DNA from: Flavobacteriales bacterium
Lineage (GTDB): Bacteria; Bacteroidota; Bacteroidia; Flavobacteriales; Flavobacteriaceae
DNA length: 64,000 nt
NCBI GenBank assembly: GCA_027067965.1
Contig: JAMOUV010000032.1
Span: 1-64,000, forward strand
Direction of reading: 5' to 3'
Positions 47,147-64,000 of the stretch are shown one piece after another (position 1 is the stretch's first letter; the number at the start of each line of letters is the position of its first letter). Below the pieces are notes generated by a model. That model made no database searches, was not told the DNA's origin, and saw nothing but the letters and a program-made list of their open reading frames with translations. A program made the position numbers and the translations under genes.

Positions 47147-48322
47147 TTAACATAAACGGGATTCAGTTTTTCCAAGGGCCTGCCGTATTAATTTTTCATG
47201 GTCCAACCGGTTCCATTCCCTTTCCACCTCTTCGAGTTTGGCACGGGTTTCGGGTCTTTCGGGTGTAAACATGGCGCAAGCATCGTCATGGGGAAGAATA
47301 GAAATATCATAAGTGCCTATTTCACGTGCCTTGCGGATTATGAATTTTTTGTCCAATGCAATCAGTGGGCTGATGGGGAGCATATCTGTAACGGCCCGGA
47401 TGGCCAATAGATTTTCCAAGGTTTGAGAAGCCACTTGCCCGAGGGAATCACCGGTTATGACGGCTTTGATATCCGTTTCTCGGGCGATTTCCGATGCTAT
47501 TTTGTACATAAAACGACGTAGCAGAATCAAGCGGAATTTAGACCGGGTTTTTCGGGCTATTTCTTGTTGAATTTCCAATACCGGGACAAGTAACAGACGC
47601 ATTCCTCCTTGATATGAACCGAGAATACCGGCCAATTTTTCGACCTTTTCGATGGATTTGGGTGAAGTTTTCGGTACGGAATGAAAATGCAAAGCCGTCA
47701 AATGCAATCCTCTTACCATGGCCATATAAGCGGCCACAGGCGAATCGATTCCTCCGCTTAAAAATGCCAATGCCTTTCCGGAACTTCCGACGGGCAATCC
47801 GCCGATACCTTGCTCTATTTCGGAATAAATAAAAGTTTGTTCGGGGCGAACTTTTACGTACAGCGTCCAATCGGGACCGGTCAGGTTCACTTTGGTTCCG
47901 AACCGGGCTACTATGGCGGCTCCGATATCGGCCGCCAATTCGCGCGACGTAAAGGGTTGGTTTTTATCGATACGTTTAACCGTAACCCGGAAACTGTCTT
48001 TATCTTCAATTTTACCCCGCGTATATGCCAGGGCTTCTTTGATGATTGTTTCTTTTTCGGTCTTCACGGTTTTGACAAAATAAAATTGTGTGATTCCGGG
48101 TGTTGTTTTTAAAATTCTCCGGATATCCTCCCGCGTTTGCTCATCGATATTTCCTGTAATTTCCATAAAAATGGAACCACCCCGGACACGTTGTATGCGA
48201 AGTAAATGTTGAAAGGGTTTTAATTTCTTTTGCAGTTGCTCTTTGAGTTTTTTAATAAAAAACGAACGGTTCTCACCTTTGAGGTATATTTCTTCGAAAT
48301 TTATAATCACAAGTTCATTCAT
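47147..48322 (-). CDS. thiI: tRNA 4-thiouridine synthase ThiI (no rhodanese domain)
   Basis: A 391-residue enzyme that adenylates and thiolates U8 of tRNA and can also supply sulfur for thiazole synthesis. An N-terminal ferredoxin-like segment and a THUMP domain (about residues 60-165) are followed by a PP-loop domain with SGGIDSP (about 187-193). The sequence ends shortly after HDDACAMFTPERPE, so the C-terminal rhodanese domain of the 482-residue E. coli protein is absent, as in many other bacteria. I chose the ATG at 48322 (MNELVIINFEEIYLKGENR) over the upstream in-frame codon because it gives the family N terminus. Confidence 0.93.
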   Translation of the reverse strand: MNELVIINFEEIYLKGENRSFFIKKLKEQLQKKLKPFQHLLRIQRVRGGSIFMEITGNIDEQTREDIRRILKTTPGITQFYFVKTVKTEKETIIKEALAYTRGKIEDKDSFRVTVKRIDKNQPFTSRELAADIGAAIVARFGTKVNLTGPDWTLYVKVRPEQTFIYSEIEQGIGGLPVGSSGKALAFLSGGIDSPVAAYMAMVRGLHLTALHFHSVPKTSPKSIEKVEKLAGILGSYQGGMRLLLVPVLEIQQEIARKTRSKFRLILLRRFMYKIASEIARETDIKAVITGDSLGQVASQTLENLLAIRAVTDMLPISPLIALDKKFIIRKAREIGTYDISILPHDDACAMFTPERPETRAKLEEVEREWNRLDHEKLIRQALGKTESRLC

Positions 48323-48350
48323 CGATTCAATTTTCGCAGGCAAAGATAAA

Positions 48351-48809
48351 TTATTTTTCGGCGCTTTCATCCGTTTTCCGGAACAAAACAGGCACATTAA
48401 AGCTTACATTCACCCGGCGCTTATCCTTCACGGCGGGTTGTACCGCCGGCAGTTGTCCGATCCATTTTTGTCCGGTACGAAATACCGCATCGTAATTCGC
48501 CGTCCGGGTAGGATAAATGCTGTCCAATATTATCCGGCCGGTAGTATCCACTTGCAAAGCAAACCATACGGTATCGGTTTGCACAAGTCGATGAAGCGTT
48601 TGGCGGGCGGTATCCGCCCTAATAATTTTTTCAAGCGAATCGGAAAATTTTCTCACAAAACACCAGTTCAAAACCTGTTTGGATTGATAATGTTCACAAC
48701 CGGGAAATACGGGATAATAATCGGGCAAAGCTTCCTGCGGTTCGGTATGCTTGGAATGACAAGCGCCTATTAATAATACCAATAAAATTAATATGCCGTA
48801 ACGCAGCAT
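48351..48809 (-). CDS. Small lipoprotein with TonB C-terminal-like fold, unknown function
   Basis: A 152-residue lipoprotein; the signal peptide ends at the cysteine of LLIGACHSK (residue 17). The mature part has the pattern YYPVFPGCEHY followed by a later VDTTGRIILDSIYPTRT and LPAVQPAVKDKRRVNVSFNVPVLF. These resemble the beta strands of energy-transducer TonB C-terminal domains in Bacteroidota, but no TonB membrane anchor is present. I chose the ATG at 48809 rather than the TTG at 48860 because it begins the signal peptide. It lies 28 nt upstream of thiI on the same strand. Function unknown. Confidence 0.65.
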   Translation of the reverse strand: MLRYGILILLVLLIGACHSKHTEPQEALPDYYPVFPGCEHYQSKQVLNWCFVRKFSDSLEKIIRADTARQTLHRLVQTDTVWFALQVDTTGRIILDSIYPTRTANYDAVFRTGQKWIGQLPAVQPAVKDKRRVNVSFNVPVLFRKTDESAEK

Positions 48810-54896: not shown

Positions 54897-56252
54897 ATGA
54901 GAAATAAAAAAATCGAAAATATAATATACGAATTAGTAGACCAATATACTTATGATGATTCCAGTAATAGACCATGGATTATTGGCTTTAGTGGAGGAAA
55001 AGATTCAACTGTCCTACTCACTTTGGTTTGGCGAGCATTAGAAAAGATCAAACAAGAATTACAGTTTGAATTAAAAAGACAAGTTTATGTTGTTTGTAAT
55101 GATACTATGGTTGAAAATCCAATTATTTCAGAATATGTCGATGATGTTTTAGAAAAAATAGAAAATGCAGCAAGAAGTCAAAACTTACCTATTGTTGTAA
55201 AAAAAACCATTCCTAAAATTGAAGAAACATTTTGGGTGAATGTTATAGGAAAAGGATATCCTGTGCCTAATAATTCATTTCGTTGGTGCACCGATAAGTT
55301 AAAAATTAGACCAACATCAGCATTTTTAACTGAACAAATTGATGAGAAAGGTGAAGCAATTATTTTAATAGGTGCAAGAAGTAGTGAAAGTGCCACGAGA
55401 GCCAAGTCTATAAAAAAACATGAAATAAAAGGGAGAAGATTAACAAAACATCCTAATCATCATAATACAATGGTATATTCCCCCATAAAGGAACTAACTT
55501 TAGAAGAAATATGGTATATTATTAATGCTCTACCTTCGCCTTGGGGATATGATAATTCTAAACTATTTAGTATTTATGCTAATGCAAGTGCTGATGATTA
55601 TGAGTGTCCTACAGTTGTTACAAATAAAAATCATACATCTTGTGGACAAAGTAGATTTGGTTGTTGGACATGCACAGTAGTAAAAGAAGACAAATCTATG
55701 TCAGCCTTAATTAAAAATGGAGAAAAATGGCTTACACCTCTATTAAAATATAGAGACCGATTGGTTGAAGAAAGAAATATTTCTAAAAACAGAATGGTAA
55801 CACGTAGAAATGGACAAATGGCAGTTACTGAAGATGGCCACAATCAAGGAAGTTATACAGCTGAATATCGAGCTAGAAAATTAAAAGAATTATTAGAAAT
55901 TCAAAAAGAAATTCAAAAAACGAATCCATTAATTGAATTGATAACTAATCAAGAGTTAATAGCCATACAAGTTTATTGGTATAGAGATGGCATATTTGAT
56001 TATAAGGTTGGTGAGATTTATTCAAAAATTTATGGACGAAAAATAGATACTGAAAATTCAAATCTTGAAACAACTATTGAAAAACAATTGTTAAAAAGTA
56101 TTTGTCAAGAAAACCCGGATGATTATGAATTGATTAATAATCTATTAACTTTACAACATAGTAAAACTCTTTTGCTTTCAAATTACGGTTTGCAAAATGA
56201 TATAGAAAGAAGAATTGAAAAATATGTCAAAACAATAGGCAATGAGGATTAA
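54897..56252 (+). CDS. dndC: DNA phosphorothioation protein DndC
   Basis: A 451-residue PP-loop enzyme related to PAPS reductases. It activates the DNA backbone and hands over sulfur during phosphorothioation. The ATP pyrophosphatase loop is SGGKDS (32-37). Cys131 lies in FRWCTDKLKIRP, and Cys249, Cys256 and Cys259 in SCGQSRFGCWTCTVV, with Cys237 before them, are candidate iron-sulfur ligands. The C-terminal helical region (about 300-451) matches the DndC extension and is absent from sulfate-assimilation enzymes. It overlaps dndD by 11 bp. No cysteine desulfurase is adjacent; a chromosomal IscS/SufS-type enzyme presumably supplies sulfur, as in known IscS-dependent systems (inference). Confidence 0.93.
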   Translation: MRNKKIENIIYELVDQYTYDDSSNRPWIIGFSGGKDSTVLLTLVWRALEKIKQELQFELKRQVYVVCNDTMVENPIISEYVDDVLEKIENAARSQNLPIVVKKTIPKIEETFWVNVIGKGYPVPNNSFRWCTDKLKIRPTSAFLTEQIDEKGEAIILIGARSSESATRAKSIKKHEIKGRRLTKHPNHHNTMVYSPIKELTLEEIWYIINALPSPWGYDNSKLFSIYANASADDYECPTVVTNKNHTSCGQSRFGCWTCTVVKEDKSMSALIKNGEKWLTPLLKYRDRLVEERNISKNRMVTRRNGQMAVTEDGHNQGSYTAEYRARKLKELLEIQKEIQKTNPLIELITNQELIAIQVYWYRDGIFDYKVGEIYSKIYGRKIDTENSNLETTIEKQLLKSICQENPDDYELINNLLTLQHSKTLLLSNYGLQNDIERRIEKYVKTIGNED

Positions 56253-58329
56253 TAAGGTTATATTAAATAATTTTAGAATATATAAAGGGAAAAATGAAAT
56301 TCATTTTTCTAACCATGATGAATCTAAAAACATTTCTATCATTGCAGGACAAAATGGGTTTGGAAAAACGACATTTCTTTCAGCATTAGTTTGGGGATTC
56401 TATGGAAGATTAATTTCTGATGTAGATGAAAAATATAAAAAAGAGATTTATGAATCAGGAGGATATAAAAAGTATGCAAAAACAATTTTAAATAAAGATA
56501 TTTACAATAATGAAAAGGAAACAAAAATATTTAGTGTTGAAATAGAACTTTCTGATGTATATATTCCTTCTGTTCCTTGCAAAAATATTGTAATAAAAAG
56601 AGAATTTGATGTAAATACTGAAAAAGAATTTGTAAAAATATTAATTGATGGGTTTGAAAATGAATTAACAAAAGAGGTTGGAGCAGATTTATTTATTAAT
56701 GATTTTATTTTACCACGAGAGATTGCTAAATTCTTTCTTTTTGATGCTGAAAAAATAGTTTCTTTAGCAGAAATAAAAACTATACACGAAAAAAGAAAAT
56801 TAAGTAAAGCATATTCTGAAGTTTTAGGAATAAACAAATATGAAAAGCTGAAGAAAAACCTAGAAAGTCTTCAAATAAAATTTAGGAAAAAATCCGCAAG
56901 TAAAAAAGATAGAAATAAGTTAGAAAAATTACAATTAGAAGCTGAGGATACTAGAAAATTAATCGAAATTAATGAATCAAGAATTAAATCTAATCAAGAT
57001 GAAATTGAACGATTGAAAGATTTATCGGAAGAATATCAAGAAAAATTGATAAGAGAAGGAAATACAATGACAGTCGAAGATTTAATAAGGCACAAAAAAT
57101 TACGTGACACATTAAAAGCTCAAAGTGTTGAAATTAAAGCTAAATTAAAAGAGTTATTAGAATTAGCACCATTTGCAATAGCAGGAAGTAAAACTAGATT
57201 ATTATACAATCAGATATACGCTGAATTTCAACAAAAACAAAAACAAATTGATATAAATTTTATTAAAACTAAAATAGAAACTATTAAAGAAAAAATTAAT
57301 AATCAATTTGAAACCAAAACAATTCCTAACGACATAAAAAATGAAGTGATTAAGATAATATCTGAAACTATTTTAGAAGATATTGGTCAACAAAAAGTTA
57401 CAGTAGAAAAAATTTTGCTTGACTTAAACGCAGAACAGTCTAATGAATTTTTTGCAATTTATGATAACTTAAAAAATTCATTTAATGTTTTATTTAAACA
57501 GATTGTAAAAGAAGAAAGAAACAATAGAATATTTTTAGCTAAAACTTTAAAAAAGATTTCAAATGCTGAGTCAAAAGAAGCCGATGTTTTAACTAAAAAA
57601 TATAAAACAGAAAAAGCAATTATAGATAAGAAAATAAAAGAATTAACTATAGAACAAAATAAATTATATGAAGAAATTGGAGCTTTACAACAAAAACTTA
57701 CTACAAAATCAAAACTTATTTCAGAATTAGCAAAAAGGGTAAAACTTGATGATTTAGATGATAAAAAAGACAAAGTTACCAGCAGACTTATAAAAGAGCT
57801 TAATGATTTTATAATAAGATATAAATCTGAAAAGAAATTTTCTTTACAACAAAGAATTAAACAAGAACTTGTAAAATTAATGCACAAAAAAGACTTTATA
57901 TCTGAAGTTGATGTCGTAATAAGCAATGACATTATTGACATTAATCTTATTGATAGAAATGGGAATATCATTGATAAAGAAACTTTATCCAAAGGAGAAC
58001 AACAATTATTTGCAACAGCACTTCTTAAGTCATTAGTTGATGAGTCGGGAATTCAATTCCCTGTTTTTATTGACAGCCCCTTACAGAAATTTGATAAAAA
58101 ACATTCTCAAAATATAATAACAGAATTTTATCCATCAATTTCAAAACAAGTAATATTATTTCCTTTACTTGAAAAGGAATTGACAAAGAAAGAATACGAT
58201 TTGTTATTGCCTTATGTTTCTCAAACTTTTATTATTGAGAACAATGATGATAGCTCTAAAATAACAGAATGTAAGCCAAATGAATTATTTAATTTAATTG
58301 AAAATAAAAACAATGTTTACACACATTAA
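56242..58329 (+). CDS. dndD: DNA phosphorothioation ATPase DndD
   Basis: A 695-residue SMC/Rad50-like ATPase of the modification complex, thought to supply energy for or gate access to DNA. Walker A is GQNGFGKT (36-43); the family segment LPREIAKFFLFDAEKI sits at 157-172. Long coiled coils (about 195-270 and 425-525) flank a hinge without a CxxC hook. The ABC signature is LSKGEQQ (582-588) and the Walker B region is FIDSP (609-613). Start ATG at 56242 overlaps dndC. The 3' end overlaps dndE by 17 bp. Confidence 0.92.
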   Translation: MRINKVILNNFRIYKGKNEIHFSNHDESKNISIIAGQNGFGKTTFLSALVWGFYGRLISDVDEKYKKEIYESGGYKKYAKTILNKDIYNNEKETKIFSVEIELSDVYIPSVPCKNIVIKREFDVNTEKEFVKILIDGFENELTKEVGADLFINDFILPREIAKFFLFDAEKIVSLAEIKTIHEKRKLSKAYSEVLGINKYEKLKKNLESLQIKFRKKSASKKDRNKLEKLQLEAEDTRKLIEINESRIKSNQDEIERLKDLSEEYQEKLIREGNTMTVEDLIRHKKLRDTLKAQSVEIKAKLKELLELAPFAIAGSKTRLLYNQIYAEFQQKQKQIDINFIKTKIETIKEKINNQFETKTIPNDIKNEVIKIISETILEDIGQQKVTVEKILLDLNAEQSNEFFAIYDNLKNSFNVLFKQIVKEERNNRIFLAKTLKKISNAESKEADVLTKKYKTEKAIIDKKIKELTIEQNKLYEEIGALQQKLTTKSKLISELAKRVKLDDLDDKKDKVTSRLIKELNDFIIRYKSEKKFSLQQRIKQELVKLMHKKDFISEVDVVISNDIIDINLIDRNGNIIDKETLSKGEQQLFATALLKSLVDESGIQFPVFIDSPLQKFDKKHSQNIITEFYPSISKQVILFPLLEKELTKKEYDLLLPYVSQTFIIENNDDSSKITECKPNELFNLIENKNNVYTH

Positions 58330-58705
58330 AACATCTAAAGCCAATCGAGAATTAGTTTCAAAATTAACCAGAAAGTTAAATTTAGGAACTGAAAATCATA
58401 TTGCTAGAATTGCTTTAACCTATTCTTTGTCAAAAGATAGAAAAATGGATTTGTCGAATATTAAAGATTCAGGAGGTAAAGAATACAGTAAAAATGTTCT
58501 TTTTGGGAATTATATGCCTTTTTATATTTCTCTAATTTGTGTTCATTATAATTTATATAAAACTGACAAGGATATCCCCAAATATATTAAAATGCACATT
58601 GATGATGGTCTAGAATTAATAAATAAAGAATTAAATGAAAACCCAAATTTGGATGGGTTTGAATATATAATAGATAAAATTGAAAAAGGATTATCAAAGA
58701 TTTAA
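58313..58705 (+). CDS. dndE: DNA phosphorothioation protein DndE
   Basis: A 130-residue small helical protein; DndE proteins bind nicked double-stranded DNA as a tetramer and are required for modification. The pattern NRELVSKLTRKLNLGTENHIARIALTYSL, then GNYMPFYISLICVHYN and KMHIDDGLELI, matches the DndE family in order and spacing. I chose the ATG at 58313 (MFTHIKTSKAN) rather than 58298, because the family begins close to this point; it overlaps dndD by 17 bp. The C-terminal 30 residues are a charged extension. Confidence 0.88.
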   Translation: MFTHIKTSKANRELVSKLTRKLNLGTENHIARIALTYSLSKDRKMDLSNIKDSGGKEYSKNVLFGNYMPFYISLICVHYNLYKTDKDIPKYIKMHIDDGLELINKELNENPNLDGFEYIIDKIEKGLSKI

Positions 58706-58710
58706 ATATT

Positions 58711-59301
58711 ATGGAAAAAGCTTTACAAAATTTTGGTTTACGGGAAGTACTAGAAATATTATTCCCAGGCATATATGTAACATCTTTTATATATTTGTGT
58801 GTAAATGAATTAACAACTATAAATATTACAAACAATAGCTTTATAAACGGTGTTATTTTTTCATTATTTTCAATACTAATAGGGCTAATTTTTTATTGGA
58901 TTAATCTACCTAAAAAAATACCATTCTTTAAAAATAATTTACCTACGGAAAAATTAATAAAGAATCACACAAACATTACCAAAACAAAACTTATTAATGC
59001 TTTTTTTAAATACTATGATAATGCTATTTCAGAAAAGCAAAAAACAAAAACAGATACTTATACTGCTTTATATCACTTCACTATAAATATTGCTTTGGGG
59101 TCTGTTATCCTATTAATTGTTTATTGTTGCTTCTGTAAGAATTATTATAATCATATTACAATCATATTAATTATATTAATTTTATCAATAATAAATGCGT
59201 TGGGATTATTTTATGGTGAAAAAAAAATAAAATATATGTTTGATAGGCAATATAATAGTTTCATTAATTCTGATAATTATAAAACTCTTATCCAAGAATA
59301 A
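58711..59301 (+). CDS. Four-helix membrane protein in the dnd operon, unknown function
   Basis: A 196-residue integral membrane protein I do not recognise. Four hydrophobic segments are visible at about residues 12-33, 44-66, 121-142 and 148-168. Between segments 2 and 3 is a 50-residue basic loop (KNNLPTEKLIKNHTNITKTK and onward), and a charged tail of about 28 residues follows segment 4. It starts 5 nt after dndE and ends 1 nt before the helicase gene, so it belongs to the same transcript. Possible roles are membrane tethering of the complex or an effector acting on the membrane; both are inference. Confidence 0.7.
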   Translation: MEKALQNFGLREVLEILFPGIYVTSFIYLCVNELTTINITNNSFINGVIFSLFSILIGLIFYWINLPKKIPFFKNNLPTEKLIKNHTNITKTKLINAFFKYYDNAISEKQKTKTDTYTALYHFTINIALGSVILLIVYCCFCKNYYNHITIILIILILSIINALGLFYGEKKIKYMFDRQYNSFINSDNYKTLIQE

Positions 59302-59302
59302 T

Positions 59303-61558
59303 ATGCTTAAAACAACGCCATTTCATATCGTATATGCAACCGGTGAAGAACACGAACCAATAGAGTTTTTCTTTGATGCTTTATTGGAAAGCAAAACCTT
59401 TGATTTAGGTTTAGGTTACTTTAGTTCATCCGCAATTAGTGCTTTAAGTGCCGGATTTGCATATTTTATTCATCGAGGTGGCAAAATGAGAATTATCATT
59501 AATGATGTTTTGTCTCAAAAAGATAAAGATGCTATTGAACAAGCAATTAATTCTGAAGTAGAATTTGAAGAAGCTATTTTACAGGATATTAAACAATTAT
59601 TTAAGACTTTATCAAAACAAGATGAACATTTTTTTAAATGTCTATCTTATTTAATTTCGAAAGATAGGATTGAATTTTTAGCAACTAAACCAAAAAATGG
59701 GAAACGAGGTATTGCCCATAACAAATATGGCATATTTAAAGACGAAGAAGGAAATAAAGTAGCTTTTAATGGTTCAGCAAATTTCTCAAAAAATGCACTA
59801 ATTAATAATGTAGAATCAATTAGTTGTTATAAATCTTGGACATCAAGCGAAGAAGACAAAAAAAGATTAAGCTATTTTGAAAATCTGTTTAATAAAACGT
59901 GGAATGGCAAAGCAAAAAACTTAGAAGTTATTCCAATAAACAGAGTAAAAACGTATATACAAAATACTTTTGATGTAGATGATATTGAGGAACTTCTAAA
60001 TGAAGAAGTAAAGTTAATATCGCAAAATAAAAGATTACCAAAAAGAATAAAAGAAAAGGTAGACAAATTATTTTCTACTAATAAAAAAGAACCTCATTTT
60101 CCTATCTTTAATGGTAAACAAGCTGAACCAAGACAATATCAAAAAGATGCTTATAAAGCTTGGATTAATAATAATTACCTTGGTATTTTTGCAATGGCAA
60201 CAGGCACAGGTAAAACAATAACTTCATTGAATTGCATATTAAATGAATACAAAAAGAATAAATCCTATAATGTTTTAATTTTAGTTCCAACTAGAGCGTT
60301 GGTGTCTCAATGGATAGAAGAAGCAAAAAAATTTAATTTTAGTAATATTTACACAACTCAAGATAAAAATTGGTTTAATATTTTAAGTGACCTTTTATTC
60401 AATCTTATGTTAAATAGTGATGAAGATAACAATATTGTATTTATTTCAACATATGCAAGCTTTAATGGAGATAAATTTCAACGCTTAATGCGCAATAAAG
60501 GTTGGAATGAGTTTATTTTAATAGCTGATGAAGCTCACAATATGGGTTCACCTAGAACCTTAAAAAACTTACCAAACAACATTCTTAAAAGAATAGGTTT
60601 ATCTGCAACCCCAGAAAGAGTTTATGATGAAAAAGGCTCAAATAAAATTTATGAATTTTTTAATTCAAAACCACCTTGCTATACTTACTCATACTCAATG
60701 TATAAAGCTATCACACAGGAGCCAACAGTTTTAACAAAATATTTTTATTATCCATATTTTACTCATTTAAACGAAAAAGAATTAGTTGAATATAATGAAA
60801 TTACCAAACAACTATATAGAAATTATGATCCAAAAACAGGAGAATTTAATGAATTTGGTAAAAGACTTTTAATAAAACGAAAACGAATTATTAATAAAGC
60901 GGAAAATAAAATTGAAGTATTAAAACAGATTTTTTTAGATGTTCAAAAAAAGGAATCTAATTTAAAATATACTTTTGTTTATGTTCCGGAAGGTAAAGAC
61001 ACTAATTATGATATAGAAGACAGATATATTTTGGACAATAATGATAAAAGATTAATTGACAAATATGCAAAAGCTATTAAATCTTTTGGATATTCTACAC
61101 ATAATTTACTAGCAGACACACCCAATAGAGAAAAAGTTCTTTCTCAATTTGAAAGAGGTTTGATAGATGTGCTTTTGGCAATGAAAATTTTAGATGAAGG
61201 TGTCGATATTCCTATTACTAGAAATGCAATATTTTGTGCTAGCACAGGGAATCCCAGACAGTATATTCAACGAAGAGGTAGAATATTAAGGAAATATAAA
61301 GGCAAACAATATGCAAATGTTTTTGATATAATTGTTGCCCCGGAGGAACGATATATTAATAATTTAGAGGATCAATTGAAAGAAATGGAAATAAACATTT
61401 TTAGAAATGAACTTCGAAGGGTAGCAAATTTCTTATATGCTGCAGAAAACCGTCATCAAGTATTATCTGGAAAATTAGGGGAATTAGCTGATTATTACAA
61501 CATAAACATACATCAATTAATACAAGATAATTTAAATTTAGATAATAAATGTAAATAA
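59303..61558 (+). CDS. Fused PLD-type nuclease and DEAH superfamily 2 helicase (putative restriction enzyme)
   Basis: A 751-residue two-part protein. Residues about 5-205 form a phospholipase D-like nuclease domain: the HxK motif HNKYGIF has His139 and Lys141, followed by GSANFS (157-162). Residues about 275-680 form a superfamily 2 helicase with Walker A ATGTGKT (299-305), DEAH (409-412), SATP (434-437) and the arginine motif QRRGR (656-660). The ATG at 59303 gives an N terminus at the start of the PLD fold; an in-frame codon at 59240 lies inside the previous gene. Next to DndCDE it is the best candidate for a nuclease that senses unmodified DNA. The restriction role is inference. Confidence 0.88.
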   Translation: MLKTTPFHIVYATGEEHEPIEFFFDALLESKTFDLGLGYFSSSAISALSAGFAYFIHRGGKMRIIINDVLSQKDKDAIEQAINSEVEFEEAILQDIKQLFKTLSKQDEHFFKCLSYLISKDRIEFLATKPKNGKRGIAHNKYGIFKDEEGNKVAFNGSANFSKNALINNVESISCYKSWTSSEEDKKRLSYFENLFNKTWNGKAKNLEVIPINRVKTYIQNTFDVDDIEELLNEEVKLISQNKRLPKRIKEKVDKLFSTNKKEPHFPIFNGKQAEPRQYQKDAYKAWINNNYLGIFAMATGTGKTITSLNCILNEYKKNKSYNVLILVPTRALVSQWIEEAKKFNFSNIYTTQDKNWFNILSDLLFNLMLNSDEDNNIVFISTYASFNGDKFQRLMRNKGWNEFILIADEAHNMGSPRTLKNLPNNILKRIGLSATPERVYDEKGSNKIYEFFNSKPPCYTYSYSMYKAITQEPTVLTKYFYYPYFTHLNEKELVEYNEITKQLYRNYDPKTGEFNEFGKRLLIKRKRIINKAENKIEVLKQIFLDVQKKESNLKYTFVYVPEGKDTNYDIEDRYILDNNDKRLIDKYAKAIKSFGYSTHNLLADTPNREKVLSQFERGLIDVLLAMKILDEGVDIPITRNAIFCASTGNPRQYIQRRGRILRKYKGKQYANVFDIIVAPEERYINNLEDQLKEMEINIFRNELRRVANFLYAAENRHQVLSGKLGELADYYNINIHQLIQDNLNLDNKCK

Positions 61559-61566
61559 TTACAACT

Positions 61567-61764
61567 ATGGAAATAGAAGAAAGAATAATTTTAGAAATTG
61601 AAAAATCGTTTGAAGAAATTCAAGAAGAGATTGACAAGGAATTATTAAAAAAAGTAAATAAACTTTTTATTTACAAATCAGTGAAATTGACTGAAGACAA
61701 AGAGTTTTCAAATAGAGATGCTATTAATCAGATAGAAAATAAATTGTATGATATTATAAAATAA
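61567..61764 (+). CDS. 65-residue acidic helical protein, unknown function
   Basis: A very small charged protein with mostly Glu, Ile and Lys (EERIILEIEKSFEEIQEEID), predicted to be two alpha helices with a short basic turn. No metal-binding or catalytic motif is seen. It lies 8 nt after the helicase and 7 nt before the second ATPase. This spacing and coding bias support a real gene that may act as an adaptor or inhibitor between the two; that role is inference. Confidence 0.7.
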   Translation: MEIEERIILEIEKSFEEIQEEIDKELLKKVNKLFIYKSVKLTEDKEFSNRDAINQIENKLYDIIK

Positions 61765-61771
61765 TTGCACT

Positions 61772-63925
61772 ATGATTATTTCAAAAGCTAGAATAAAAAA
61801 TTTTCAATCATATTACGAAATAACTGATTTTAATCTAGAAAAGGGATTAAATTTATTTCTTGGGCCCATTGGTGCTGGTAAATCAAAATTATTTAATGCA
61901 TTCTATTGGTGTTTTTACGATGAAATGTATAAAACAGATTATGGTTGGCTTCCAGTTGATTCAAGAAATTTTCTTTCAATTTTTAATAAAAAAGCTCTAT
62001 TAGAAGCAGATGTAAATGATATTATTGAAAGTTGTGTTGAATTAACCGTAATTACTGAGGATAAAACATATAGCATTAAAAATCAAATTACAATAAAACG
62101 CATTAATTCAGAAGATTATACTTCTGAAAAAAATTGGAAAATTTTAAATAATGGACTTATTGTTTCGTTTGATAATGAAGATGGAAACAGAATAAATCTT
62201 GAAAATTTAGAAGCAAAGAATTATATTGATAAAAAAATATTACCCAAACAAATAAGTAAATATATTTGGTTCCAGGGCGAAACTTTAAATGAGTTAATTG
62301 ATATTAAAAATGGAACAACTTTTAAAAATGCCATAAACTACATATCATATATAGAATACTATGAAAACAATATCAAGCTTATTAATGATGTTATAAGAAG
62401 AATAGAGAAAGAATTAAGAAAAAAACAGAGAAAAAACACTTTAAATGAAAATGAGTTTAATAGACTTTCTCACGAAATTGAAAGATTGGAAAGAGAGATA
62501 GAATCAAATCAATATCAAATAGATAATAAAAAAATTGAATTAACAAAAATTAAAAAAACTATTAGTGATATTGATAAACGTTTAAATGACATAAATGAAT
62601 ATATTGATTTAAAGCACAAAAAAGAGAAATTAGAATCCGAACTAAAACATGTATTTGAAAAAATAGAGGAATTAGATAAAAATAAAAGCAACGAATTTTC
62701 CAAAAAATGGATTTTATACGGCACAAATAAATTATTAGAAAAAGGATACAAAAAATTAAATAAATTTCAGAAATGGTATGAAGAAAATCAAAACAATAAT
62801 CCAACAGGCTTACCTTATGACATACCTTCACCTGCATATTTAAAAGAAATGTTAGATAAAAAAGAATGTTTTGTTTGTGGTAATAAATTTAACGAAGGCA
62901 GTGAACATTATAGAATAATTAAAGAAAGATTAGATTATGCTACGGGCAAACTAGAAGAAATTAAAAATAAAAACAAAGAATTGCTTTCTTTAAATAATAA
63001 AGTAACAGCTCTTTTATCGACGAAAAATATTTTATTAAATACAATTAATAATATTGAAGAATATATAAAAACTTTTTTTCAAAAATATAAAGAATTAAAT
63101 GAAAGGAAAAAAAGACTTATTGAAGAATTAAAGAACATAAAAGATGAAATAACAGCTTTACAAGAAAAGCACGGCAATAAAATGACTGATAGCTTTACAA
63201 ATGAAAAATCTAAATATAATTATAATTTAGATGAAAAAGAAAGAATAAACTCTATATTAAAAAATTTAAATAATGAGCAGTTTAGATTAGAAAATGAATT
63301 AATGCATAAAAAGAAAGACCTTAATAATATCCCACAAAATACTAGTAAGGAATATCAAGAAGAAAAAATACTAAAATATTTATTAGCATTAAAAAATATC
63401 TATGAAAAAACACGAGATGAAGAATTTAAAAAACTAATTGATAAAGTTGAAAAAAAGGCAAATGATATTTTATATAAAATAACTAGAGCAAACCCTAATG
63501 TTATTACTGGAAAAATTGTTATTGATAGAGATACATTTAAAATTAAACTTGTTGATTTGGACGATAATGATAATAGAGACCCTAATACAGGACATACTGT
63601 TTTAACAAAAATGTGCATTATCAATGCAATGGTATTAATTTCAAATGAATACAAAAATAAATCATATTCTTTCATTACCGATGCGCCTACTTCTGATTTA
63701 GATGATGGAACAACAAAACTTTATTACAAAATAATAAATGATGAATTTGAACAAAGTATTGTATTAACAAAAGATTTGTTCGTTTATAAAAACAATAAAA
63801 ATGAAATTGATATCGATTCCTTAAAGCAATTTAATTTTAACAATGTATTTCTTATTAAAAAAGAAGGAGCTAATGAAAATTTAACAGAATCCAATTCTTA
63901 TAGTAAAATAGAAAAAATAATATAG
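61772..63925 (+). CDS. SMC/Rad50-like ATPase, DndD-related, with zinc-hook-like CxxC
   Basis: A 717-residue ATPase. Walker A is GPIGAGKS (31-38). The segment LPKQISKYIWFQGETL (157-172) occupies exactly the same residue positions as LPREIAKFFLFDAEKI of DndD, showing common descent. Two long coiled coils (about 200-310 and 385-560) flank CFVCG (Cys366, Cys369), resembling the zinc hook of Rad50. The Walker B region is FITDAP (634-639) with a D-loop SDLDD. A clear LSGG-type signature is not evident. It is probably a DNA-sensing or bridging partner of the nuclease-helicase (inference). The next gene starts 2 nt later. Confidence 0.85.
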   Translation: MIISKARIKNFQSYYEITDFNLEKGLNLFLGPIGAGKSKLFNAFYWCFYDEMYKTDYGWLPVDSRNFLSIFNKKALLEADVNDIIESCVELTVITEDKTYSIKNQITIKRINSEDYTSEKNWKILNNGLIVSFDNEDGNRINLENLEAKNYIDKKILPKQISKYIWFQGETLNELIDIKNGTTFKNAINYISYIEYYENNIKLINDVIRRIEKELRKKQRKNTLNENEFNRLSHEIERLEREIESNQYQIDNKKIELTKIKKTISDIDKRLNDINEYIDLKHKKEKLESELKHVFEKIEELDKNKSNEFSKKWILYGTNKLLEKGYKKLNKFQKWYEENQNNNPTGLPYDIPSPAYLKEMLDKKECFVCGNKFNEGSEHYRIIKERLDYATGKLEEIKNKNKELLSLNNKVTALLSTKNILLNTINNIEEYIKTFFQKYKELNERKKRLIEELKNIKDEITALQEKHGNKMTDSFTNEKSKYNYNLDEKERINSILKNLNNEQFRLENELMHKKKDLNNIPQNTSKEYQEEKILKYLLALKNIYEKTRDEEFKKLIDKVEKKANDILYKITRANPNVITGKIVIDRDTFKIKLVDLDDNDNRDPNTGHTVLTKMCIINAMVLISNEYKNKSYSFITDAPTSDLDDGTTKLYYKIINDEFEQSIVLTKDLFVYKNNKNEIDIDSLKQFNFNNVFLIKKEGANENLTESNSYSKIEKII

Positions 63926-63927
63926 AT

Positions 63928-64000
63928 ATGAATAATATACTTGATGAAATATTAGCTTATAGTCCGAAAGTTGAGGCAAAATATAAAGAATCAATCATCG
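63928..64000 (+). CDS. Start of a further operon gene, cut by the window edge
   Basis: An ATG at 63928, 2 nt after the ATPase stop, opens a frame that runs uninterrupted for 24 codons to the window end (MNNILDEILAYSPKVEAKYK and on). The spacing and codon use match the operon. Too little is visible for any family assignment. Confidence 0.6.
   Translation, partial: MNNILDEILAYSPKVEAKYKESII

What the first reader, a model, noticed from the sequence alone, without database searches (positions are those of the whole stretch)
54897..58705. DndC-DndD-DndE phosphorothioation core in a Bacteroidota chromosome
Three overlapping genes carry the diagnostic features of the modification core: a PP-loop plus cysteine cluster in DndC, an SMC-like ATPase with LSKGEQQ and FIDSP in DndD, and the small DndE. 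This predicts that the host DNA carries sulfur in its backbone at specific sites. It also explains the dense operon and its foreign composition.
Basis: partly seen in the sequence, partly recalled or inferred. Interest (0 to 1): 0.75.

Follow-up and report, generated by a model that had tools for sequence, protein, structure and literature searches.

The report
DNA-sulfur marking and phage-defence operon
The genes are a real DNA-sulfur-marking (Dnd) kit joined to a known phage-blocking (Pbe) kit on a recently acquired stretch of a Bacteroidota chromosome; the one odd thing is that this bacterium and its genus lack any recognisable standard enzyme that supplies the sulfur.

Summary
Confirmed. 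DndC (54897-56252), DndD (56242-58329) and DndE (58316-58705) are real. DndC and DndD score above NCBI's curated cut-offs. DndE is below NCBI's cut-off but well above Pfam's. The finding stops too early, though. The operon runs on through a Csx27-like membrane protein (58711-59301) into a complete Pbe-type effector cassette: PbeA, PbeB, PbeC, and PbeD just past the window end. All of it sits on a 21-30% GC island in a ~41% GC chromosome. So the locus is a DndCDE-PbeABCD system, a known PT-dependent antiviral type, and a new member of that kind.
Two details are less ordinary. First, the slot between dndE and pbeA is exchangeable: a near-identical locus (92% DNA identity in dndE, 98% in pbeA) carries a different membrane gene plus a DndB-like DGQHR gene there. 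Second, no dndA is present, and neither this genome nor any of 8 genus-mates has a canonical cysteine desulfurase. Their suf operon runs sufBCD-sufE where a family relative has sufS in between. The prediction that host DNA carries phosphorothioates is therefore likely but has an unresolved step, the sulfur donor. The one candidate is a divergent 490-aa SufS-like protein.

The parts
54897..56252 (+). DndC: PP-loop ATP pyrophosphatase/sulfurtransferase with Fe-S cysteines (451 aa)
   Evidence: TIGR03183 427 bits over cut-off 290; PADLOC DndC 481 bits; invariant SGGKDS and five Cys
56242..58329 (+). DndD: SMC-like ABC ATPase (695 aa), no CxxC hook
   Evidence: TIGR03185 248.3 bits, just over cut-off 245.85; LSKGEQQ and FIDSP motifs; PADLOC's best model carries the label PbeC (460 bits) ahead of DndD (278), probably a labelling overlap in that library
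58316..58705 (+). DndE: small DNA-binding subunit (129 aa)
   Evidence: Pfam DndE 93.5 bits, PDB 7x4e DndE E=4.6e-9, 54-60% identical to DndE of four other Dnd-Pbe loci
58711..59301 (+). Accessory 4-TM Csx27-like membrane protein (196 aa) between the modification and effector modules; its stop overlaps the pbeA start
   Evidence: four hydrophobic segments; homologs in 3 of 394 other Bacteroidota genomes at E<1e-5; 5 of 5 aligned members match PADLOC Csx27, best E=3.8e-7, the window member only 0.003
59297..61558 (+). PbeA: HKD/PLD nuclease fused to SF2 helicase (753 aa)
   Evidence: PADLOC PbeA 824 bits; TIGR04095 401 bits (under cut-off 600); HKD, Walker A, DEAH, SATP and QRRGR motifs intact and conserved
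61567..61764 (+). PbeB candidate: small charged protein (65 aa)
   Evidence: position between pbeA and pbeC; 71-77 aa ORFs in the same slot in seven relatives; no family hit
61772..63925 (+). PbeC: CxC-type ABC ATPase with CxxC hook (717 aa)
   Evidence: PADLOC PbeC 139 bits; Walker A Gly/Lys, CxxC hook and DAP of Walker B invariant in the 8 sequences aligned
63928..64000 (+). PbeD candidate, start only; the gene continues to 64398 in the host contig (156 aa, L002:9928-10398)
   Evidence: position after pbeC; alignable with 12 PbeD at the same position; no Pfam or PADLOC hit; no profile match to DndE

Best explanation
This is a horizontally acquired DndCDE-PbeABCD antiviral operon. DndC, DndD and DndE form the complex that puts phosphorothioates at a specific short DNA motif: DndE and the DndD ATPase scan and position the DNA, and DndC activates the phosphate and transfers sulfur. 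PbeA-D then act against DNA lacking the mark: the PbeC ATPase with PbeD scans DNA, and the PbeA helicase-nuclease blocks or breaks the invader, with PbeB as a small regulator. The Csx27-like membrane protein between the two modules is an exchangeable accessory, possibly a membrane-acting back-up effector or regulator. Shown here: gene identity, order, intact motifs, foreign composition, slot exchange. Inferred from the literature: PT chemistry, dependence of Pbe on PT, existence of a target motif. Not accounted for: the sulfur donor, since no DndA, IscS, NifS or SufS is found; a divergent SufS-like 490-aa protein is the best candidate.
For: Curated-family scores for DndC/D/E; PbeA and PbeC by PADLOC with intact motifs; PbeB/PbeD by position and family alignment. 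The same DndCDE-PbeABCD order occurs without the membrane gene in another Bacteroidota genome (L044), and DndCDE lies beside PbeA-C-D in convergent orientation in L047, L082 and L090. GC drop across exactly this stretch. 1 of 9 genus genomes has DndC, as expected for acquisition. An archaeal DndCDEA-PbeABCD cut virus plating about 10^4-fold and needed PT (PMC6459918).
Against: No dndA in the operon and no canonical cysteine desulfurase in the genome or genus; in the archaeal system a DndA active-site mutation abolished defence. DndE falls below NCBI's equivalog cut-off and DndD only just passes. PbeD has no detectable profile similarity to DndE here, although Rakesh et al. call it a DndE cognate.
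Confidence: 0.82

Rival explanations
1. The operon is intact in sequence but silent for modification in this host: without a cysteine desulfurase, DndC gets no sulfur (and perhaps no Fe-S cluster), so host DNA carries no phosphorothioates and Pbe is idle.
For: No SufS/IscS/NifS/DndA-grade gene in 9 of 9 genus genomes; sufS absent between sufD and sufE in the six genus genomes where that junction is readable.
Against: All reading frames and catalytic motifs are intact, so the genes have been under selection until recently at least; SufBCD and SufE are kept, so the cell must mobilise sulfur somehow; a SufS-like class V protein is present.
Confidence: 0.15
2. DndCDE here are not a modification complex but part of a different base modification or a generic repair set (CysH-like reductase plus RecN/SbcC-like ATPase).
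For: PAPS-reductase and AAA_23 Pfam domains match as the wider superfamilies.
Against: Family-level scores favour DndC and DndD by hundreds of bits, a DndE lies next to them, and the order is that of known Dnd operons.
Confidence: 0.02
3. The Pbe half is an independent restriction or suicide system that merely neighbours the Dnd genes.
For: Pbe/CxC cassettes often occur without Dnd; in relatives Pbe lies convergent to Dnd or next to Ssp-type genes; the dndE-pbeA boundary is where the two near-identical loci differ.
Against: In the window the genes are co-directional and nearly touching from dndC to pbeD with one composition, and archaeal PbeABCD needed PT.
Confidence: 0.15

Closest known systems
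DndCDEA-PbeABCD of Haloterrigena jeotgali A29 (PMC6459918)
   Same: DndC, DndD, DndE followed by PLD-helicase PbeA, tiny PbeB (66 vs 65 aa), CxC ATPase PbeC and small PbeD (152 vs 156 aa) in the same order
   Different: no dndA here; an extra Csx27-like membrane gene between dndE and pbeA; bacterial host
CxC ABC-ATPase-anchored Dnd systems (Rakesh, Aravind, Krishnan 2024, PMC10853773)
   Same: tandem DndD-DndE and CxC-ATPase cores with HKD-SF2 nuclease and small protein; common missing dndA
   Different: their proposed substitution by housekeeping IscS/NifS/SufS is not available in this host; Csx27 is not mentioned in the main text
DndCDE-PbeABCD locus L044 (another Bacteroidota genome, unnamed handle G184)
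   Same: identical core order
   Different: no accessory gene between dndE and pbeA; a NifS/DndA-like desulfurase lies close to pbeD
Ssp-type modification plus Pbe loci (L043, L083, L084, L085)
   Same: same Pbe cassette downstream
   Different: the modification half is Ssp-type, with its own desulfurase

Membership tests
Dnd phosphorothioation core | DndC with PP-loop and Fe-S cysteines | tested here: met
   TIGR03183 427 bits over 290; motif conservation
Dnd phosphorothioation core | DndD SMC-like ATPase | tested here: met
   TIGR03185 248.3 over 245.85
Dnd phosphorothioation core | DndE | tested here: met
   Pfam DndE 93.5 over 25; under the NCBI equivalog cut-off; 7x4e DndE E=4.6e-9
Dnd phosphorothioation core | DndA or a housekeeping cysteine desulfurase (IscS/NifS/SufS) | tested here: not met
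   none in the operon or genome; best class V hit 142 bits vs 440 or more for SufS in all 22 family and order relatives. dndA is missing from most known Dnd loci (present in 32% of taxa, PMC10853773), so this weakens the function claim, not the family assignment
Dnd phosphorothioation core | phosphorothioates in host DNA | not testable with these tools
   needs LC-MS/MS or iodine cleavage
PbeABCD effector cassette | PbeA: PLD/HKD + ResIII + helicase C | tested here: met
   PADLOC PbeA 824 bits; PLDc_2, ResIII, Helicase_C; motifs intact
PbeABCD effector cassette | PbeC: CxC ATPase with CxxC hook | tested here: met
   CxxC invariant in the 8 sequences aligned; PADLOC PbeC 139 bits
PbeABCD effector cassette | small PbeB and PbeD in the order A-B-C-D | tested here: met
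   65-aa and 156-aa ORFs in the right slots
PbeABCD effector cassette | PbeD is a DndE homolog (Rakesh et al.) | tested here: inconclusive
   profile comparison probability 7.5%
Csx27 (type VI-B accessory) | membrane protein matching Csx27 | tested here: inconclusive
   family matches (best E=3.8e-7) but the window member only E=0.003, and no Cas13b seen in the island
DndFGH restriction module | dndFGH next to dndCDE | tested here: not met
   no candidate among the ORFs of the window from 46000 or of the 30 kb of host contig downstream (read by eye; only the island's own proteins were profile-searched); rest of the genome not searched

The most novel reading that the evidence does not exclude
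DNA phosphorothioation here runs without any canonical cysteine desulfurase, with sulfur supplied either by the divergent 490-aa SufS-like protein that may also have replaced SufS in Fe-S assembly across the genus, or directly from sulfide or other persulfide carriers.
Probability: 0.3. Interest if true: 0.65.

Novelty: new member of a known kind. Interest (0 to 1): 0.4.

Why it matters
It places a complete DndCDE-Pbe defence operon in a streamlined (about 2 Mb) Bacteroidota genome and shows that the junction between marking and effector modules is a swap site for accessory genes, including a Csx27-like membrane protein. The missing cysteine desulfurase gives a direct test of whether DndC can use a non-standard sulfur source.

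Tried and rejected
Generic CysH/RecN explanation: rejected by profile scores. DndB in the host genome: none. Genus-mate empty insertion site: gene order around the YciO/Sua5 neighbour is not conserved in the genus, so no clean empty site was seen. The Csx27-like ORF on plasmids: no match. Single-sequence fold of that ORF: all helical but pLDDT 55, not usable for a fold search. PDB relatives of DndC and DndD by sequence: none. Closest DNA relative L012 is labelled Chlorobiota MAG; because it is a 4-kb contig of a MAG, no cross-phylum transfer is claimed. Whole-genome download was not available, so genome-wide statements rest on family and protein searches.

Full report
What is there. DndC beats the TIGR03183 cut-off (427 vs 290 bits), DndD just beats TIGR03185 (248.3 vs 245.85), and DndE passes Pfam DndE (93.5 vs 25) while missing NCBI's TIGR03184 (53.1 vs 71.85). 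DndE's only significant solved relative is 7x4e, annotated as DndE. The PP-loop SGGKDS and cysteines 131, 237, 249, 256 and 259 of DndC are invariant in the three sequences aligned.

What the finding left out. The same strand continues with a 196-aa membrane ORF (58711-59301), PbeA (59297-61558), a 65-aa PbeB candidate (61567-61764), PbeC (61772-63925) and, past the window end, a 156-aa PbeD candidate (63928-64398; L002:9928-10398). PbeA scores 824 bits to PADLOC PbeA and keeps the HKD, Walker A, DEAH, SATP and QRRGR motifs seen in its relatives. PbeC has the CxxC hook that marks the CxC class, invariant in eight sequences. PbeB and PbeD are assigned by position and, for PbeD, by an alignment of 13 positional equivalents; they have no convincing family hits and PbeD could not be linked to DndE by profile. 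All eight genes have 21-30% GC and GC3 of 14-19%, against 43-44% and 47-51% in two neighbouring host genes, and GC returns to host values between 64.5 and 65 kb. Only one of nine genus genomes has DndC. This is an acquired island.

How it works. By analogy with DndCDEA-PbeABCD of Haloterrigena (PMC6459918), DndCDE marks host DNA and PbeABCD blocks unmarked invaders. There all four pbe genes were needed for full protection and a DndA active-site mutation abolished it. Rakesh et al. (PMC10853773) reinterpret Pbe as a CxC-ATPase system with a real nuclease, which fits the intact HKD motif here. Whether the block is by cleavage or by halted replication is unsettled in these two papers and is not decided here.

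The accessory slot. A 3,970-bp contig (L012) matches the window at 92% DNA identity through the end of dndE and 98% from the start of pbeA, but between them carries 1.86 kb of unrelated sequence encoding a 168-aa membrane protein and a 446-aa DGQHR/DndB-like protein (TIGR03187 145 bits, Pfam DndB 39.7 bits) instead of the window's membrane ORF. Another genome (L044) has nothing in the slot. The window's ORF has four hydrophobic segments and distant homologs in unrelated contexts in three other genomes; all five aligned members match PADLOC Csx27 weakly to moderately. It is best read as an exchangeable accessory of unknown action; a membrane-acting regulator or back-up effector is my guess.

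The sulfur-donor problem. Most Dnd loci lack dndA and are thought to borrow IscS, NifS or SufS (PMC10853773). In this genome the class V aminotransferase family gives only a 490-aa protein (142 bits), SerC and weak hits; all eight genus-mates likewise show two strong hits with the same score pattern, while all 22 family and order relatives have SufS above 440 bits. A relative's SufS finds only one protein, at 27-30% identity, in each of the nine, and it lies at the same place as the 490-aa family hit. The suf operon is sufB-sufC-sufD-sufE-DUF59 with 10 bases between sufD and sufE; five genus-mates with a readable locus also lack sufS there, whereas a family relative has sufS between them. The 490-aa protein aligns to SufS with the PLP lysine and a cysteine in the catalytic position (RGGCSC vs RTGHHC), but scores 124 bits against a SufS cut-off of 475. 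Either it is a divergent desulfurase, or sulfur comes another way, or DndC is starved in this host. The MAGs are incomplete, but nine agreeing genomes and an uninterrupted suf operon make simple assembly loss unlikely.

Verdict. The observation and the interpretation hold. The system is a known kind (DndCDE-Pbe). The new points are the slot exchange and the missing canonical desulfurase. Interest is moderate. The organism name is not known; placement in Bacteroidota, probably Flavobacteriaceae, is inferred from the size of the family in the genome sample and from gene content.

Noticed in passing
L057:5710-10478 (G000 C33) and L060-L064: Genus-wide loss of sufS from a suf operon that keeps sufBCD, sufE and the DUF59 gene; no other canonical cysteine desulfurase found.
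   Followed up: partly
L012:594-2433: Near-identical Dnd-Pbe locus carries a 168-aa membrane protein plus a 446-aa DGQHR/DndB-like protein in place of the window's membrane ORF.
   Followed up: yes
L043, L083, L084, L085: PbeABCD lies directly downstream of an Ssp-type module (DUF4007 SspB, large AAA SspC, PAPS-reductase-like SspD, desulfurase SspA) in several Bacteroidota genomes, an Ssp-Pbe pairing; one literature search did not settle whether it has been described.
   Followed up: partly
window 47147-48397 (-): ThiI-like tRNA sulfurtransferase (identified by eye from its sequence), normally fed by a cysteine desulfurase, in a host with no canonical one.
   Followed up: no
L047:2792-4462: MzaB-like HATPase protein directly after dndE in another Dnd-Pbe locus.
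   Followed up: no
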